Positions 1 through 6,020 of a stretch of 64,000 nt of DNA are shown here, in pieces. Within the stretch, counting starts at the first letter, position 1; each line of letters begins with the position of its first letter. The stretch lies in contig NZ_CP143258.1 of NCBI RefSeq assembly GCF_036320655.1, positions 1,674,001-1,738,000 on the forward strand, written 5' to 3'. Below the pieces are notes generated by a model that saw only the letters and a program-made list of their open reading frames with translations, was not told the DNA's origin and searched no databases. The stretch is from Porphyromonas pogonae. Its GTDB lineage: Bacteria; Bacteroidota; Bacteroidia; Bacteroidales; Porphyromonadaceae. The position numbers were made by a program, and so were the translations under genes.

Positions 1-2
1 GC

Positions 3-71
3 AAAGTACACAAGATGCCATCGAGTAACCATCAAGAAATTGAAGATATATTAGAATCTCTATTAATATAG
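3..71 (+). CDS. Possible 3' end of a gene that starts before the window
   Basis: One frame is open from the first bases to a TAG at 69-71 and would end in a short acidic tail (EIEDILESLLI). The tail looks like a normal protein C-terminus, but 22 codons are too few to identify a family. The other two frames close earlier. It lies just upstream of the small zinc-knuckle gene and has the same direction. Confidence 0.3.
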   Translation, partial: KVHKMPSSNHQEIEDILESLLI

Positions 72-137: not shown

Positions 138-389
138 ATGGCAAATTTTTATTGTGAATACTGCGGACAAAAGTTCTCGTCAGTTAGTTCATTAACGGCA
201 TCAAGTTGCTCGCGTCATCCTAACGGAGCAGGCAAGGGCAAACACAAACTTTATGAAGGGAGTGAGAAGGCGAAATATACCTGCAAATACTGTGGGCAGT
301 CTTTCTCCTCACTTTCTTCATTAACGGCATCGAGTTGCTCTAGGCCTCCCAATGGTGCAGGTAAAGGCAAGCATGCTCCTGCATTGTAG
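138..389 (+). CDS. Small duplicated zinc-knuckle protein (83 aa)
   Basis: I do not recognise this as a named family. The protein is two nearly identical halves with a 43-residue period. Each half has a CxxC pair (C6/C9 and C49/C52), a serine-rich stretch (SSLTASSCSR), a third cysteine (C24, C67) and a histidine after a glycine/lysine run (H36, H79), so each probably binds one zinc ion in a C-C-C-H or related arrangement. There is no signal peptide or membrane segment. The two DNA copies differ at many third-codon positions, so the duplication is old and both halves have been kept under selection. Nucleic-acid or protein binding is possible but unproven. Confidence 0.6.
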   Translation: MANFYCEYCGQKFSSVSSLTASSCSRHPNGAGKGKHKLYEGSEKAKYTCKYCGQSFSSLSSLTASSCSRPPNGAGKGKHAPAL

Positions 390-522
390 AAAGGTAAGCG
401 GATTCGACTTCCAAATTCGTTTTTAGTCACTGGAATGAATCCACAAGATGCTTTCGAATCCCAACACAATGGCGATGCCGAAAACCATACAGAGTATGCA
501 AAAATACAAATCAAACATTAAT

Positions 523-723
523 GTTATGCCAGCATATAAATTAACAGCCACAAGACAAATGGGCAAAATACCTAAAGGTTTTGTACTTCAGGTAGCATCA
601 AACTCTATACCTAAGCCAGATGCGAAAGATGTAGAAAATGCAATTATTCGTGCAGGATTCGATGATAATAATTCGCGTAGCTACAAATCTGCGGGAAATT
701 GGACTGTTGAAAAACTCGGTTAA
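523..723 (+). CDS. Small conserved-looking protein, function unknown (about 66 aa)
   Basis: The reading frame is open from 448, but the compact folded-looking part starts at the ATG at 523 (MPAYKLTATRQMGKIPKGF), so I chose that start. The residues before it are low-complexity and probably untranslated. It ends KSAGNWTVEKLG. From memory, short Bacteroidota proteins with an IPKGF/VSNSIP core and a GNW..EKL tail exist without a known function. It is followed within 45 bases by a clear terminator, so it and the zinc-knuckle gene form a unit separate from the ATPase gene downstream. Confidence 0.5.
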   Translation, partial: VMPAYKLTATRQMGKIPKGFVLQVASNSIPKPDAKDVENAIIRAGFDDNNSRSYKSAGNWTVEKLG

Positions 724-763: not shown

Positions 764-790
764 AAAACTGCTCAAATGAGCAGTTTTTTT
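764..790 (+). terminator. Rho-independent terminator after the 66-aa gene
   Basis: An 11-bp perfect stem (AAAACTGCTCA with TGAGCAGTTTT) with a two-base loop runs directly into a T tract. It separates the small upstream genes from the ATPase operon. Confidence 0.85.
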
Positions 791-834: not shown

Positions 835-843
835 TATCTTTGT
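835..843 (+). promoter_or_regulatory. Bacteroidota -7 promoter element before the ATPase gene
   Basis: TATCTTTGT fits the TAnnTTTG consensus of the Bacteroidota primary sigma factor and lies 16 bases before the first plausible start codon. No good TTTG -33 box lies 19-21 bases upstream, so the promoter may be weak or need an activator. The WYL protein of the same operon is a natural candidate regulator. Confidence 0.5.
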
Positions 844-858
844 ATCATAATAACAAAA

Positions 859-2568
859 ATGCATATGAGACAGTTAGAAATCATTCCTCAGAATGAGACT
901 TGTAAGAAAGCGAATAGGAGAAAACAAGAAGTAACTTTAGACCTTATGGGTCATATCGAAAAAATTGTAGATCAAGCAAAAGATTCAAAACTATCGGCTG
1001 AGTTTTACAGAACAGTTAAGACTCACAGTGAATATGTTAGCAAAACTTTAGAGCTTACACCTGTACAGTCAGTTTTGATTTCGCTCTTCATTAACAATAG
1101 CGATGACCAACGCATTGAACTAAAAGAACTGTCTCGAATTGTAAATTGTTCCAATGTCGCTATGATAAGAATGATGAATGATATTGATATTTTGGTAGAA
1201 AAGAAGTATATCCGTGCTAGGCAGAATGATAAAACTTGCCAATTCTGTGTACCAAGCGATTTTATTGAAGCAGTTCGCAAGGAGACCCCTTATGTTCCTA
1301 CCCAATACATCAATTTAGACAAAGATTCATTATTTATTACAATTGAAAAACTAATTAAATTGCGTGATGATGGAGAGTGTTCATATCGAACTATCATTGA
1401 TGATTTAAGTTACATTATAGAGCAAAATCAACACCTCGAATTTTGCAAAAAAGTACGTCCATATCATCATGATTCTGACAACTTTCTAATTCTTATTACA
1501 TTTTGCTCTCTACTTGTAAATGATGATGATAATATGGTTGGATTTCATAACTTTATTGACCTTCTTGGGGATAAAAGATCGCAGATGGTTACCAAACGAG
1601 ATATGGGGCGTGGAGAGCACTTACTGATGAAAAATGGCTATAATTTAATTGAATTTATCAACGATGGCGGATTTGAGAATCACGAATATTTCAAACTAAC
1701 TTCAAAAGCAAAAAAAGAATTATTATCTGACTACAAGTTGAAAGATATTGAAGTGAAGCCGATGCGAGATTTTTTATTGCATACTACTATTGCCCCTAAA
1801 GAACTGTACTATAATGCCAGCGAAACATTACAAATTAACAAGCTAGAGAATTTACTTCAAAATAGCAACTTTCAAAATATTCAAAATCGCCTATCTGATA
1901 GCGGTATGCGCAAAGGTTTTGCCTGTCTGTTCTATGGCTCTCCTGGAACAGGAAAAACAGAAACTGCATATCAAATTGCGAGGAAAACAGGACGAGATAT
2001 TATGATTGTCAACGTTTCTGAAATAAAGAGCTGTTGGGTCGGTGAAAGTGAGAAAAACATAAAAGCCCTTTTCGATAGATATCGGGAATACGTGCGTAGT
2101 TATGAGGTTGCTCCAATTCTTCTTTTTAATGAGGCTGATGCCATTATTGGCATCCGTCAAGAGGCAGCTCAAAGAGGTGTTGACAAGATGGAGAACTCAA
2201 TCCAAAATATTATACTTCAGGAGATGGAAACTCTTGATGGGATAATGATTGCAACTACAAATCTTACTCAAAATTTAGACAAGGCTTTTGAACGAAGATT
2301 TTTATACAAAATTGAGTTTTCACGTCCCACATTGGAAGCTAAGCAATCAATATGGAAGTCAATAATGTCTTTATCAGATGCTGATGCTGAAGAATTGGCA
2401 CGTAGTTATGATTTCAGTGGAGGGCAAATTGAAAATGTCGCTCGTAAACGAACAGTTGATGTCATTATTGGCGGAGTAGAACCTACGTTGGAGACATTGC
2501 ATAGCTACTGTAGGTCAGAGCTATTGTATAAAGCAACAGAAAGACAACGCATTGGTTTTAGAATATAA
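859..2568 (+). CDS. AAA+ ATPase with N-terminal helical/winged-helix-like region
   Basis: About 569 residues. The start is placed at 859 (MHMRQLE); 865 is equally possible, and the earlier start at 808 would lie inside the promoter. Residues about 70-160 look like a winged-helix region (LTPVQSVLISLF, KELSRIVNCSNVAMI). The C-terminal AAA+ module has a Walker A GSPGTGKT (about 360-367), a Walker B LLFNEAD in which the first acidic residue is Asn (N424) while the catalytic Glu E425 is kept, and arginine-finger candidates R479/R480. This is the single-ring, Cdc48/FtsH-like layout without a protease domain, so it probably remodels a protein or nucleoprotein using ATP. It leads an operon with a WYL regulator 32 bases downstream and a beta-CASP nuclease. 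No membrane segment is visible. Substrate unknown. Confidence 0.75.
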   Translation: MHMRQLEIIPQNETCKKANRRKQEVTLDLMGHIEKIVDQAKDSKLSAEFYRTVKTHSEYVSKTLELTPVQSVLISLFINNSDDQRIELKELSRIVNCSNVAMIRMMNDIDILVEKKYIRARQNDKTCQFCVPSDFIEAVRKETPYVPTQYINLDKDSLFITIEKLIKLRDDGECSYRTIIDDLSYIIEQNQHLEFCKKVRPYHHDSDNFLILITFCSLLVNDDDNMVGFHNFIDLLGDKRSQMVTKRDMGRGEHLLMKNGYNLIEFINDGGFENHEYFKLTSKAKKELLSDYKLKDIEVKPMRDFLLHTTIAPKELYYNASETLQINKLENLLQNSNFQNIQNRLSDSGMRKGFACLFYGSPGTGKTETAYQIARKTGRDIMIVNVSEIKSCWVGESEKNIKALFDRYREYVRSYEVAPILLFNEADAIIGIRQEAAQRGVDKMENSIQNIILQEMETLDGIMIATTNLTQNLDKAFERRFLYKIEFSRPTLEAKQSIWKSIMSLSDADAEELARSYDFSGGQIENVARKRTVDVIIGGVEPTLETLHSYCRSELLYKATERQRIGFRI

Positions 2569-2600
2569 CAATTTTAGAAATTTTCAATACGTTAGATAAT

Positions 2601-3536
2601 ATGATAAAAGGAAGAACTTCATCAAAAGAGAATACTGCAAATCTGTTTAATCGTTACGTTTGGCTTGTTGACACAGTTTATCAAGCAGGCAAGACTACAT
2701 TTGAGGCTATTAATGATAAATGGTCTCGATCAATATTAAATGAATCAGGCGAAGATATTCCATTGCGTACGTTTCACAACCATCGCAAAGCTATTGAGCA
2801 GATGTTTGATATAAATATTGAGTGTGATAAGAAAAATGGCTATGTCTACTATATAGAAAATTCCGATGATTTGAAACGTGGAGGTGTACGCTCATGGCTA
2901 ATGAATACATTTGCTGTAAATAACCTGATCAATGAAAGTCATAAACTGAAAAATAGAATTCTCTTTGAACACATTCCGAGCGGGCAGCAGTTTTTGACTC
3001 CTATTATTGAGGCTATGCGTGATAATTTGACTGTGGAGGTAGTCTACCAAAACTATTGGCATGACAAACCACACACGTTTGAGGTTCATCCCTACTGTGT
3101 AAAAGTTTTCAAACAGCGATGGTATGTAGTTGGTAATAGTGCTAAAGAGGAGATACGTATTTATTCGCTTGATCGTGTGCAGTCACTCCAAATCACCGAA
3201 AATAAATTTGCATTACCTAAGGATTTTGATGGTGAAGAATATTTTATAAACAGCTTTGGTATCAGCAATTACGGTAAAGCAGAATTTGTTGCTATAAAAG
3301 TTTTTAATGGAGATAAAAAGAATCGGTATTTAGAATCACTTCCACTTCATCACTCGCAAGAAATGATAGAGCAAACTAAAGATTATACAGTTTTCCGTTA
3401 TTATATTAAGCCAACATACGACTTTCGTCAAGAGTTACTTTCACATGGTGCAGAAGTGGAGGTTATCTCTCCTCTTTGGTTCAGAGAAGAGATTATTGCC
3501 ATTATTAATGAGCAAAAAAGTAATTACGGAAAATGA
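2601..3536 (+). CDS. WYL-domain transcriptional regulator
   Basis: 311 residues. The first part (about 10-60) resembles a winged helix (NRYVWLVDTVYQAGKTTFEA). Residues about 130-210 form the WYL domain, with QRWYVVGNS as the signature and a later SLDRVQSL segment, and a WCX-like tail ends near FREEIIAIIN. WYL proteins bind nucleic-acid or nucleotide ligands and commonly repress phage-defence operons (BrxR and CapW are examples). Here it sits between an ATPase and a nuclease, and its stop overlaps the nuclease start by four bases (ATGA), which implies translational coupling. Control of its own operon is an inference. Confidence 0.85.
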   Translation: MIKGRTSSKENTANLFNRYVWLVDTVYQAGKTTFEAINDKWSRSILNESGEDIPLRTFHNHRKAIEQMFDINIECDKKNGYVYYIENSDDLKRGGVRSWLMNTFAVNNLINESHKLKNRILFEHIPSGQQFLTPIIEAMRDNLTVEVVYQNYWHDKPHTFEVHPYCVKVFKQRWYVVGNSAKEEIRIYSLDRVQSLQITENKFALPKDFDGEEYFINSFGISNYGKAEFVAIKVFNGDKKNRYLESLPLHHSQEMIEQTKDYTVFRYYIKPTYDFRQELLSHGAEVEVISPLWFREEIIAIINEQKSNYGK

Positions 3537-4798
3537 AAATAACAATTCATAGAGGCATAGACCAGATTGGGGGAAGTATTACGGAGATTGCAACAAATAA
3601 TACTCGTATATTGATAGACTTGGGACAAAATTTGCCTGACAACGAGGGTAATATAAATGACCCTCTCGCAACAAAAGAAGAAATTGAGAAACTTACATCC
3701 AAAATCAATGCAGTAATATATACTCACTATCATGGTGATCACATTGGGTTATTTAACCTTGTCCCTAAAGACAAAGATCAATATATCGGGGAGACAGCAC
3801 AACAAGTCGCACTCTGCAAACACAGGAAGTTAGGGCAAATAAAAGGGCGAAAAGAACTTTCTGCTCAGGAAGTAGAGGCAATCAGTCTTATGAAAGCGAT
3901 GAGCGGAGGTAAAACGTTTATCGTTGGCGATATTATCATTACGCCTTATTTTGTGAGCCATTCTGCGTATGAATCTTTTATGCTTCTGATAGAAGCTGAT
4001 GGCAAGCGGGTGTTGCACACAGGCGATTTCAGAGATCATGGCTATTTTGGTAAAGGGCTTACGAAAGTTCTTAAAACACACATCAGACAAGTTGATATTT
4101 TGATAACCGAAGGGACGATGCTATCTCGTAGAGATGAACAAGTTCGGCATGAGAATGAATTGAAACAGGAGTTTATTCATACTATGAAAGATTATAAAAA
4201 CTGCTTTGTAGTTTGCTCTTCAACCGATTTAGAGAGGTTGACAAGCATTTATGCAGCACATAGAGCGGTTCGTCCACAAGCCCCCTTTATCTGTGACGAG
4301 TTTCAGAAAGACATATTCGATATTTTCTCTCAAACAGCAGGCAAAATCAAGACTGATCTATTTAATTTTAGAGATGTGGTTACATTTGAAAGCAAACAAG
4401 CAGATATCTGGCATAACGGATTTACAATGCTGGTACGCTGTACCGATAAATTTGGATATTGGGTCGATAAGCTATTGCCAAAAATCAATCCAAATAATAC
4501 AGTTGTAATATTTTCAATGTGGGGTGAATATATAAATACTTCGAGTTGCCATGCAAAACGAGAATGCCTTGATTTTGTTTCTAAATTTGCGAACTTACGC
4601 AAGTTACACACTAGCGGGCACGCATCTCGAGAATGCCTTACAGAAGTTTGTGAACTCACAAATCCTAGGCTATGTATAATACCGATTCACAGTGAACACT
4701 CAAATAAATATTTAGATTTACCAATTACCCTAGATCAGAAATCTAAAGTCATTTTCAAAAGTTCTACAATAGGAGATTTAACTGTCGAAATAAAATAA
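3533..4798 (+). CDS. Beta-CASP metallo-beta-lactamase nuclease (RNase J / CPSF-73-like)
   Basis: 421 residues. The zinc-binding signature HYHGDH lies at 65-70 after VIYT, a further His follows in FVSHSA, and an Asp in HTGDFRDH. Near the C-terminus HTSGHAS is a typical beta-CASP histidine motif, and CSSTDLERL is the usual start of the beta-CASP insertion. Proteins of this layout cut RNA (RNase J, CPSF-73) or, less often, DNA. At 421 residues it is shorter than housekeeping RNase J, which has about 550 and a C-terminal dimer domain, so it is probably a specialised paralogue. It overlaps the WYL gene by four bases and is the last gene of the unit. No signal peptide, so it is cytoplasmic. Confidence 0.85.
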   Translation: MKITIHRGIDQIGGSITEIATNNTRILIDLGQNLPDNEGNINDPLATKEEIEKLTSKINAVIYTHYHGDHIGLFNLVPKDKDQYIGETAQQVALCKHRKLGQIKGRKELSAQEVEAISLMKAMSGGKTFIVGDIIITPYFVSHSAYESFMLLIEADGKRVLHTGDFRDHGYFGKGLTKVLKTHIRQVDILITEGTMLSRRDEQVRHENELKQEFIHTMKDYKNCFVVCSSTDLERLTSIYAAHRAVRPQAPFICDEFQKDIFDIFSQTAGKIKTDLFNFRDVVTFESKQADIWHNGFTMLVRCTDKFGYWVDKLLPKINPNNTVVIFSMWGEYINTSSCHAKRECLDFVSKFANLRKLHTSGHASRECLTEVCELTNPRLCIIPIHSEHSNKYLDLPITLDQKSKVIFKSSTIGDLTVEIK

Positions 4799-4940: not shown

Positions 4941-6020
4941 TTATAATTTGCTTGTATATAGCGCATAAGACGAAATGCTATGTCTTGCAAGGTGGAAGGT
5001 GACTCGTTTGTCTATACCGCATTCCTTAGCGATTCGTTTCAGGTAGATATTGGTTTTACTGCAACTTATCATCGGAAATAACCTGCCATCTTTGGCTATT
5101 CCACGATACTTTTTGATGAGTTGAAGTGGTATTTCCAATAGAGGGATATGGCAGGGTGCTCCAGTCTTTTTACGATTGAGATGAATCCACCAGACTCTAT
5201 CTTCAGCTCTGGAAATATTTTTTGCAGTCAAATTACGCATATCGCTGAATGCGATGCCTGTGAATGAGGAAAATAAGAACATATCTCGAATAAAGTTCAA
5301 ATTCGGGCGAGACAGCTTCGCTTTTATCAAGGTTTGTAATTCATCCGAAGTCAATGACTTGGGAATAGGCTCTTGGGCAATGTACTTGTAGTCAATGAAT
5401 GGATCGTTGCGAACCAAGCCATTGTTTATCGCTATTTTGATGATTCTCCGCAGATGAACGATTGTATTGATTATTGTTCCACAAGCAAGACCAAGTTCAA
5501 TACGCAGGTAGTAGTCATAATCGGGAACAAAGGAAGGAGTCAATGCCTGAAAGGGTATGTCGGAAATATTATATTTCTTTCGCATAAAACGTTTCAGATG
5601 TCCCAAAGAGGTAAGGAAGCGTTTATACGTTCCTTCTGCACGGTTTATGCCTACATTTTGTAAGAATTTCTCATTATGAGCCTCAAAGTATTTGACAAGG
5701 GTATCCTGTTGGGAAGCAATTCCCTGAAAGGTGTTCTTTACTTCCAAGGCGGAAATGTTTTCTTTTTTCACCAGCAAATCCTTGTATGCGGAATGGATGG
5801 CGACACAAATCTTGTTTAAGGATGTATTGACAGTAAGGGCGGTTTTACTTTTGCCGGTTGCTCTGCCCGATTTAGTATCCCAAAGGGATACGGGAACATA
5901 AACTTTGGTACTGAATTGCACCATTGATTTTTCGATGCGGATACGTCCCAGAATAGGGATTGTTCCGTCTGCTTTCTCCTCATTTCGTTTGAGGTAAAAG
6001 CTTACTTTTACTGCTTGCAT
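4941..6020 (-). pseudogene. Tyrosine recombinase (integrase), truncated at the C-terminus
   Basis: 359 residues survive. The N-terminus (KVSFYLKRNE...GTIPILGRIRI) is the arm-binding domain of Bacteroidota integrases, residues about 110-210 form the SAM-like core-binding domain, and about 220 onward is the catalytic domain. The HxxR box is present as HLARH at 343-347. After it homology stops: the normal continuation with the second His and the nucleophilic Tyr is replaced by about a dozen unrelated residues and a stop. The first catalytic Arg is not obvious in FLFSSFTGIAFSDM, which is also the case for IntDOT-like enzymes as I recall. Without the Tyr it cannot join DNA. The upstream TAATTTTGT (6042-6050, minus strand) is a promoter candidate. 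Confidence 0.85.

What the first reader, a model, noticed from the sequence alone, without database searches (positions are those of the whole stretch)
859..4798. Unnamed three-gene unit: AAA+ ATPase, WYL regulator, beta-CASP nuclease
Three tightly spaced co-directional genes (32-base gap, then a four-base overlap) join a regulator type that often controls phage defence, an ATPase with an altered Walker B (Asn for the first acid, catalytic Glu kept) and an RNA-cutting beta-CASP enzyme shorter than housekeeping RNase J. The unit lies beside a broken integrase and a conjugative element. I know of no described system with this gene set. A defence or RNA-surveillance role is inference from composition and location.
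Basis: partly seen in the sequence, partly recalled or inferred. Interest (0 to 1): 0.78.

Follow-up and report, generated by a model that had tools for sequence, protein, structure and literature searches.

The report
Two shuffled defence modules, one operon
Three neighbouring bacterial genes (an ATPase, a regulator and an RNase J-like enzyme) are real and lie on mobile DNA, but comparison with over a hundred related loci shows they are not a fixed three-gene system: they join two mobile building blocks, one of which, the RNase J-like enzyme, normally travels with a DNA-cutting type of enzyme that is missing here.

Summary
In detail: AAA+ ATPase (859-2568), WYL regulator (2601-3536) and beta-CASP nuclease (3533-4798), with a 32-base gap, a 4-base overlap and a family-wide Asn-Glu Walker B. 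They sit between a mobilizable element's relaxase/exonuclease/GmrSD genes and a truncated integrase. The interpretation as a three-gene unit holds only in part. In 109 distinct loci with this beta-CASP family, 83 have a PD-(D/E)XK protein immediately upstream, usually overlapping by 4 bases, from Bacteroidota to Alphaproteobacteria; often a metallophosphoesterase (PADLOC candidate PDC-S10) follows. That pair is the real core. The AAA protein forms its own module with WYL (20 of 47 loci) beside McrBC, DUF2779 or GmrSD. AAA, WYL and the nuclease occur together in 4 of 109 loci, each time in another order; three of these four also carry a GmrSD pair. The order AAA-WYL-nuclease was seen only here, with WYL in the slot of the missing PD-(D/E)XK partner. 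Best reading: a modular, mobile, probably anti-phage cassette in which a sensor/regulator module was joined to an RNA-cutting effector that lost or swapped its usual partner. No description of the PD-(D/E)XK/beta-CASP pair was found in the papers searched. Defence function is inferred, not shown.

The parts
764..790 (+). Intrinsic terminator-like hairpin (10-bp stem, T tail) that separates the trio from the genes upstream
   Evidence: Sequence AAAACTGCTC-AAAT-GAGCAGTTTTTTT; fold -13.0 kcal/mol
835..842 (+). Bacteroides-type -7 promoter box TATCTTTG (consensus TAnnTTTG), 17 bases before the AAA start codon; the -33 box is weak
   Evidence: 11 such boxes occur in 5 kb, so position, not rarity, is the argument
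859..2568 (+). AAA+ ATPase, 569 aa: two predicted winged-helix-like regions (about 68-142 and 206-288), then a classical CDC48/Vps4/IetA-like AAA domain (349-535), Walker B Asn-Glu
   Evidence: (AF2 model, mean pLDDT 76, pTM 0.44)
2601..3536 (+). WYL-WCX transcriptional regulator, 311 aa; occupies the slot that a PD-(D/E)XK gene holds in most relatives
   Evidence: tree; slot comparison
3533..4798 (+). RNase J-like MBL/beta-CASP nuclease, 421 aa, all catalytic motifs present, motif C His (RNA-type)
138..389 (+). Small protein with two C2H2-like zinc-finger motifs in a duplicated segment; same cassette, role unknown
448..723 (+). 91-aa ORF without known family, between GmrSD pair and trio
1..71 (+). 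3' end of the second GmrSD-like (DUF262) gene; the pair, a 3'-5' exonuclease and a MobA-type relaxase lie upstream of the window (L069 3793-10071)
4941..6020 (-). Tyrosine integrase, truncated before the catalytic Tyr; same family as integrases beside relatives L047 and L100

Best explanation
A composite cargo operon of an integrative mobilizable element that joins two recurrent modules. Module 1 (AAA-WYL): a wHTH-AAA+ ATPase and a WYL repressor act as infection or damage sensor and transcriptional switch. Module 2: a beta-CASP ribonuclease that in most relatives is encoded right after a PD-(D/E)XK nuclease and often before a metallophosphoesterase. In the usual form I infer that the PD-(D/E)XK protein and the beta-CASP enzyme act together on invader nucleic acid (DNA cut, RNA cut). 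In the window the PD-(D/E)XK gene is absent; WYL sits in its place and a GmrSD pair lies just upstream, so the DNA-directed part may be supplied by GmrSD while the beta-CASP enzyme, expressed when WYL is released, degrades RNA and restricts the phage or stalls the cell. Shown: the gene content, motifs, module recurrence, mobility. Inferred: RNA as substrate, WYL repression, AAA sensing, defence.
For: MBL-PD-(D/E)XK adjacency in 83 of 109 loci, including plasmids of Cereibacter and Sphingomonas. PD-(D/E)XK model pLDDT 91.7; conserved E97, D141, E156-x-K158; most of the top structural matches are PD-(D/E)XK enzymes such as NucS, Can2, Card1, HamA, SduA and McrC, best Z 8.8-8.9. AAA-WYL adjacency in 20 of 47 AAA loci, beside McrBC (6), DUF2779 (6), GmrSD (4). 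AAA plus GmrSD both near the MBL in window, L063 and L142, Fisher p = 0.008. Metallophosphoesterase partner scores 219 bits as PADLOC PDC-S10. Relaxase and integrase flank the cargo. Motif C is His (IPIH), as in RNase J.
Against: No functional data. General defence-family enrichment among other MBL neighbours is weak: at least 11 of 140 against about 5-6 of 140 control proteins, and many neighbours are housekeeping genes. PDC-S10 is itself only a candidate. The trio's exact order is seen once; three AAA+GmrSD co-occurrences are a small, post hoc count. Loci are not phylogenetically independent.
Confidence: 0.5

Rival explanations
1. The three genes form a dedicated, self-contained defence system in which the AAA protein directly drives the beta-CASP nuclease and WYL represses the operon.
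For: Tight spacing and own promoter/terminator context; AAA, WYL and MBL also meet in L063, L142 and L164; L200 has AAA in the MBL operon without WYL.
Against: Only 4 of 109 MBL loci hold all three, with different orders; most AAA-WYL pairs have no MBL and most MBLs have neither. L142 and L164 also carry the PD-(D/E)XK partner.
Confidence: 0.15
2. The beta-CASP gene is an orphan: a PD-(D/E)XK-MBL pair was broken during element decay, and the MBL gene only happens to follow AAA-WYL.
For: PD-(D/E)XK partner absent here and no relative found elsewhere in the genome (no positive control); the neighbouring integrase is truncated.
Against: MBL reading frame and all catalytic motifs intact; 4-base overlap implies translational coupling; L063 independently lacks the partner and has AAA, WYL and GmrSD.
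Confidence: 0.2
3. AAA-WYL(-MBL) controls the mobile element itself (transfer, excision or exclusion of other elements) and not phages.
For: Relaxase and integrase flank the cargo; L047 and L100 elements carry related integrases.
Against: The same modules occur away from relaxases, beside McrBC, GmrSD and DUF2779.
Confidence: 0.1
4. A replacement or supplement for housekeeping RNase J-type RNA decay.
For: Best family match is RNase J (TIGR00649 1.8e-16); RtcB plus an RF-1-domain protein (PrfH-like RNA repair pair) lie next to three related loci.
Against: Sporadic, in about 7% of genomes of the order; far below the RNase J cut-offs; lacks the C-terminal domain.
Confidence: 0.05

Closest known systems
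RNase J (beta-CASP ribonucleases); PDB 7pcr, 3zq4, and E. faecalis EF2904 (2az4)
   Same: MBL plus beta-CASP core, motifs including motif C His; the family profile's best solved match is EF2904 (7e-18), then RNase J
   Different: 421 aa, no RNase J C-terminal domain; 59.7 bits against a 400-bit RNase J cut-off; accessory and mobile, usually paired with PD-(D/E)XK
IetAS (IetA AAA ATPase)
   Same: AAA domain matches IetA models (2.4e-32 over 337-541)
   Different: Only the AAA domain; 99.7 bits against a cut-off of 510; no IetS-type protease in the examined flanks; different N-terminal half
MBL-protease pairs of Hachiman, AVAST, Lamassu and Canu (Tuck et al., PMC12799240)
   Same: Precedent: an MBL-fold nuclease module recurrently acquired by unrelated antiviral systems
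   Different: Those nucleases resemble DNA-uptake (ComEC-type) hydrolases and pair with proteases; here it is an RNase J-like beta-CASP enzyme paired with PD-(D/E)XK
Type VII CRISPR Cas14 (beta-CASP effector)
   Same: beta-CASP nuclease used as defence effector; 7.7e-10 to the Cas14 model; 8yhd matched by the family profile
   Different: 37.7 bits against an 800-bit cut-off; no cas genes among the neighbours examined
CapW/BrxR-type WYL regulators
   Same: WYL plus WCX domains, 311 aa, next to defence-type genes
   Different: No CBASS or BREX genes among neighbours; Pfam found no HTH in this protein; not compared structurally

Membership tests
RNase J family | MBL and beta-CASP catalytic motifs (HxHxDH, motifs A, B, C with His) | tested here: met
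RNase J family | Score above family cut-off (TIGR00649, 400 bits) | tested here: not met
   59.7 bits
RNase J family | C-terminal domain, about 555 aa | tested here: not met
   421 aa; match stops at profile position 388 of 546
RNase J family | 5'-3' exo- or endoribonuclease activity | not testable with these tools
   needs biochemistry
IetAS | IetA equivalog score (NF042959, 510 bits) | tested here: not met
   99.7 bits
IetAS | Adjacent IetS subtilisin-like protease | tested here: not met
   Pfam on neighbours from relaxase to integrase shows none
Type VII CRISPR Cas14 | Cas14 model cut-off (NF045584, 800 bits) | tested here: not met
   37.7 bits
Type VII CRISPR Cas14 | CRISPR array and Cas5/Cas7 genes | not tested
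   arrays not searched; no cas gene among the annotated neighbours
CapW/BrxR WYL regulators | wHTH-WYL-WCX architecture | tested here: inconclusive
   WYL and WCX found; wHTH not detected by Pfam
CapW/BrxR WYL regulators | Linked CBASS or BREX genes | tested here: not met
   neighbours are GmrSD, exonuclease, relaxase, AAA, MBL, integrase
PD-(D/E)XK-MBL pair (core seen in this study) | PD-(D/E)XK gene within a few genes of the MBL gene | tested here: not met
   WYL in that slot; no relative of the main partner family found in the genome, search without positive control
AAA-WYL module (seen in this study) | wHTH-AAA with NE Walker B directly beside WYL | tested here: met
   window WYL is sister to the AAA-paired WYL of L100
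GmrSD / type IV restriction | GmrSD_N (DUF262) domains above cut-off | tested here: met
   For the adjacent upstream pair, not for the trio itself: 113 and 76 bits

The most novel reading that the evidence does not exclude
A widespread, undescribed non-CRISPR defence core in which an RNase J-like beta-CASP ribonuclease works with an interchangeable DNA-cutting partner (several unrelated PD-(D/E)XK families, or a GmrSD pair when PD-(D/E)XK is missing), switched by a WYL repressor and an AAA+ sensor, so that DNA and RNA of the invader are attacked together.
Probability: 0.3. Interest if true: 0.78.

Novelty: new variant of a known kind. Interest (0 to 1): 0.5.

Why it matters
RNase J-type enzymes are known as housekeeping RNA-decay enzymes; as defence effectors I know only the CRISPR type VII case. 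If the PD-(D/E)XK/beta-CASP pair is antiviral, it would be a new common nuclease core with swappable partners, found from gut Bacteroidales to Alphaproteobacteria plasmids. It would also show how a sensor/regulator module (AAA-WYL) is plugged into different effectors (McrBC, GmrSD, DUF2779, beta-CASP) on mobile elements. The window locus is a natural test: does the beta-CASP enzyme work without its usual partner?

Tried and rejected
Looked for the trio as a conserved unit: found in 4 of 109 loci, order not kept. Tested whether two contigs of G413 (L060, L100) join into PD-(D/E)XK-MBL-MPE-AAA-WYL-integrase: no end overlap, so not claimed. Searched viral contigs: only 2 MBL relatives, and one close plus one partial AAA relative, so not chiefly phage genes. 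Phage records: one partial weak match. Pfam gave no family for the main PD-(D/E)XK partners; Foldseek gave no match at E <= 0.001, so the assignment rests on the VIA-align list, motif conservation and an AF2 model. The PADLOC hits of the MBL protein to LmuA and RTasMBL are short MBL-motif matches. Paper searches for PDC-S10, beta-CASP with anti-phage terms, and WYL with MBL fold and AAA found no description of this set. The neighbour enrichment test came out weak and is reported as such.
Full report
CHECK. The first protein is a wHTH-AAA+ ATPase with a classical AAA domain at 349-535 (Pfam 1.2e-24; PADLOC IetA 2.4e-32; p97, Vps4 and proteasome folds). Walker A (GSPGTGKT), sensor 1 and both Arg fingers are invariant or nearly so in 35 homologues, and so is the Asn of Walker B: the altered Walker B is a family trait. 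The AF2 model (pLDDT 76, made from six sequences only) shows two helix-helix-helix-strand-strand segments before the AAA domain, which I read as tandem winged helices; that reading was not tested separately. The second protein is a WYL-WCX regulator. The third is an RNase J-like MBL/beta-CASP enzyme with all metal ligands and motif C His.

CONTEXT. The window is part of a 2.9-Mb single-contig Bacteroidales genome. Upstream of the window lie, in the same direction, a small 131-aa ORF, a MobA-type relaxase, a 3'-5' exonuclease, two GmrSD_N (DUF262) proteins, a small zinc-finger protein and a 91-aa ORF. A terminator-like hairpin (764-790) and a TATCTTTG box (835) then precede the AAA gene, so the trio may be its own transcript; the -33 element is weak. 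Downstream is a tyrosine integrase truncated before its catalytic Tyr, followed by a tetQ/rteA-type conjugative element. The cargo therefore appears to belong to a mobilizable element whose integrase end was damaged, possibly by the neighbouring conjugative element (inference).

DISTRIBUTION. The MBL family is accessory: 29 of 393 genomes of the order, in 25 of 206 genera, none in 3 other genomes of the genus. The AAA family is in 59 of the same 393. They co-occur in 11 genomes (4.4 expected, p = 0.0014) and in 5 of these lie within 10 kb (0.06 expected).

WHAT THE MBL NORMALLY TRAVELS WITH. I mapped genes around 109 distinct MBL loci: the order survey, plasmids, and the best 80 from a scan of 84,980 species that had at least 571 relatives. 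In 83 of 109 the gene immediately upstream in the same direction is a PD-(D/E)XK-type protein (76 by profile, 7 by the D...ExK motif), usually overlapping by 4 bases; several more have it one or two genes away or fused (for example L068). A model of the main partner family has pLDDT 91.7; residues E97, D141, E156 and K158 are invariant in 40 sequences; the VIA-align list is dominated by PD-(D/E)XK enzymes (NucS, EndoMS, XisH, Can2, Card1, HamA, SduA, McrC; best Z 8.8-8.9), although Foldseek alone gave no E <= 0.001. Proteins of at least four sequence types fill this slot (profiles PDX, PDXb, PDXc, PDXd, plus L139, L191, L200 and L217), so the partner seems to be swapped while the MBL stays. 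A metallophosphoesterase, PADLOC candidate PDC-S10 (219 bits), is near in 26 of 109 and WYL in 33 of 109. The pair also occurs on Sphingomonas, Cereibacter and Rhizobium plasmids.

WHAT THE AAA NORMALLY TRAVELS WITH. In 47 AAA loci, WYL is within two genes in 20 (13 same direction, 7 opposite). Third genes vary: McrBC (6), DUF2779 (6), GmrSD pair (4). The window WYL is sister to the WYL of L100, which is paired with the window-like AAA (50% identity) and an integrase of the same family, without MBL. So AAA-WYL was probably inherited as a module.

THE TRIO. AAA, WYL and MBL share a locus in the window, L063 (AAA-MBL-WYL-GmrSD-GmrSD, with a divergent double-AAA protein), L142 (GmrSD-GmrSD-WYL-AAA-ORF-PD-(D/E)XK-MBL-DUF2779) and L164 (WYL-ORF-PD-(D/E)XK-MBL-ORF-AAA, the AAA gene split). 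In three of these four a GmrSD pair is also present; AAA and GmrSD near an MBL coincide more than expected (p = 0.008, small post hoc counts, loci not independent). The window and L063 lack the PD-(D/E)XK gene, which suggests, but does not show, that GmrSD can stand in for it.

MECHANISM. Most likely: WYL represses, a trigger (nucleic-acid ligand or damage) releases it, the AAA protein acts as sensor or remodeller, and the beta-CASP enzyme cuts RNA, with DNA cutting by PD-(D/E)XK in most loci and perhaps by GmrSD here. Gene content and motifs are shown; substrate, trigger and defence role are inferred. A general enrichment of known defence families in the remaining MBL neighbourhood is weak, so defence rests on mobility, PDC-S10, WYL and the type IV restriction partners.

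VERDICT. Observation confirmed; three-gene unit not conserved; two recurrent modules found, one of which (PD-(D/E)XK plus beta-CASP) I could not find described in the papers searched. The closest conceptual precedent is the recurrent acquisition of MBL-protease pairs by several antiviral systems (PMC12799240), which involves a different MBL type and partner.

Noticed in passing
L187:10124-11919, L191:11928-13729, L217:5439-7234: An RtcB ligase followed by an RF-1-domain protein (PrfH-like RNA-repair pair) lies close to the PD-(D/E)XK-MBL genes in three loci; possible link between RNA cutting and RNA repair.
   Followed up: partly
L044:8793-10100: A beta-CASP relative whose HxHxDH motif reads HFHPEL and which has no PD-(D/E)XK partner: probably a dead enzyme after partner loss.
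   Followed up: no
L115:6464-8791: The same NE-type AAA domain fused to a Pif1-like helicase (my reading of the sequence).
   Followed up: no
window 138-389: Small protein made of two near-identical C2H2-like zinc-finger segments, between the GmrSD pair and the AAA gene.
   Followed up: no
L219:4091-5791: A close AAA relative (48%) sits at the edge of phage structural genes in an IMG/VR contig, so the module can be prophage cargo.
   Followed up: partly
L047:7554-12327, L100:2367-4937: Elements with integrases of the window's family carry PD-(D/E)XK-MBL-MPE (L047, beside a relaxase fragment) or MPE-AAA-WYL (L100): the same element family appears to shuffle these modules.
   Followed up: partly
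L068:6081-7571, L061:9928-10542: An unnamed ~200-aa domain occurs alone before the MBL gene (L061) and fused to the PD-(D/E)XK protein (L068).
   Followed up: no
L052:7177-8109: In this locus a REase-ARP (PF22558) PD-(D/E)XK protein lies near the PD-(D/E)XK slot, one small ORF before the MBL gene: a further partner type.
   Followed up: no
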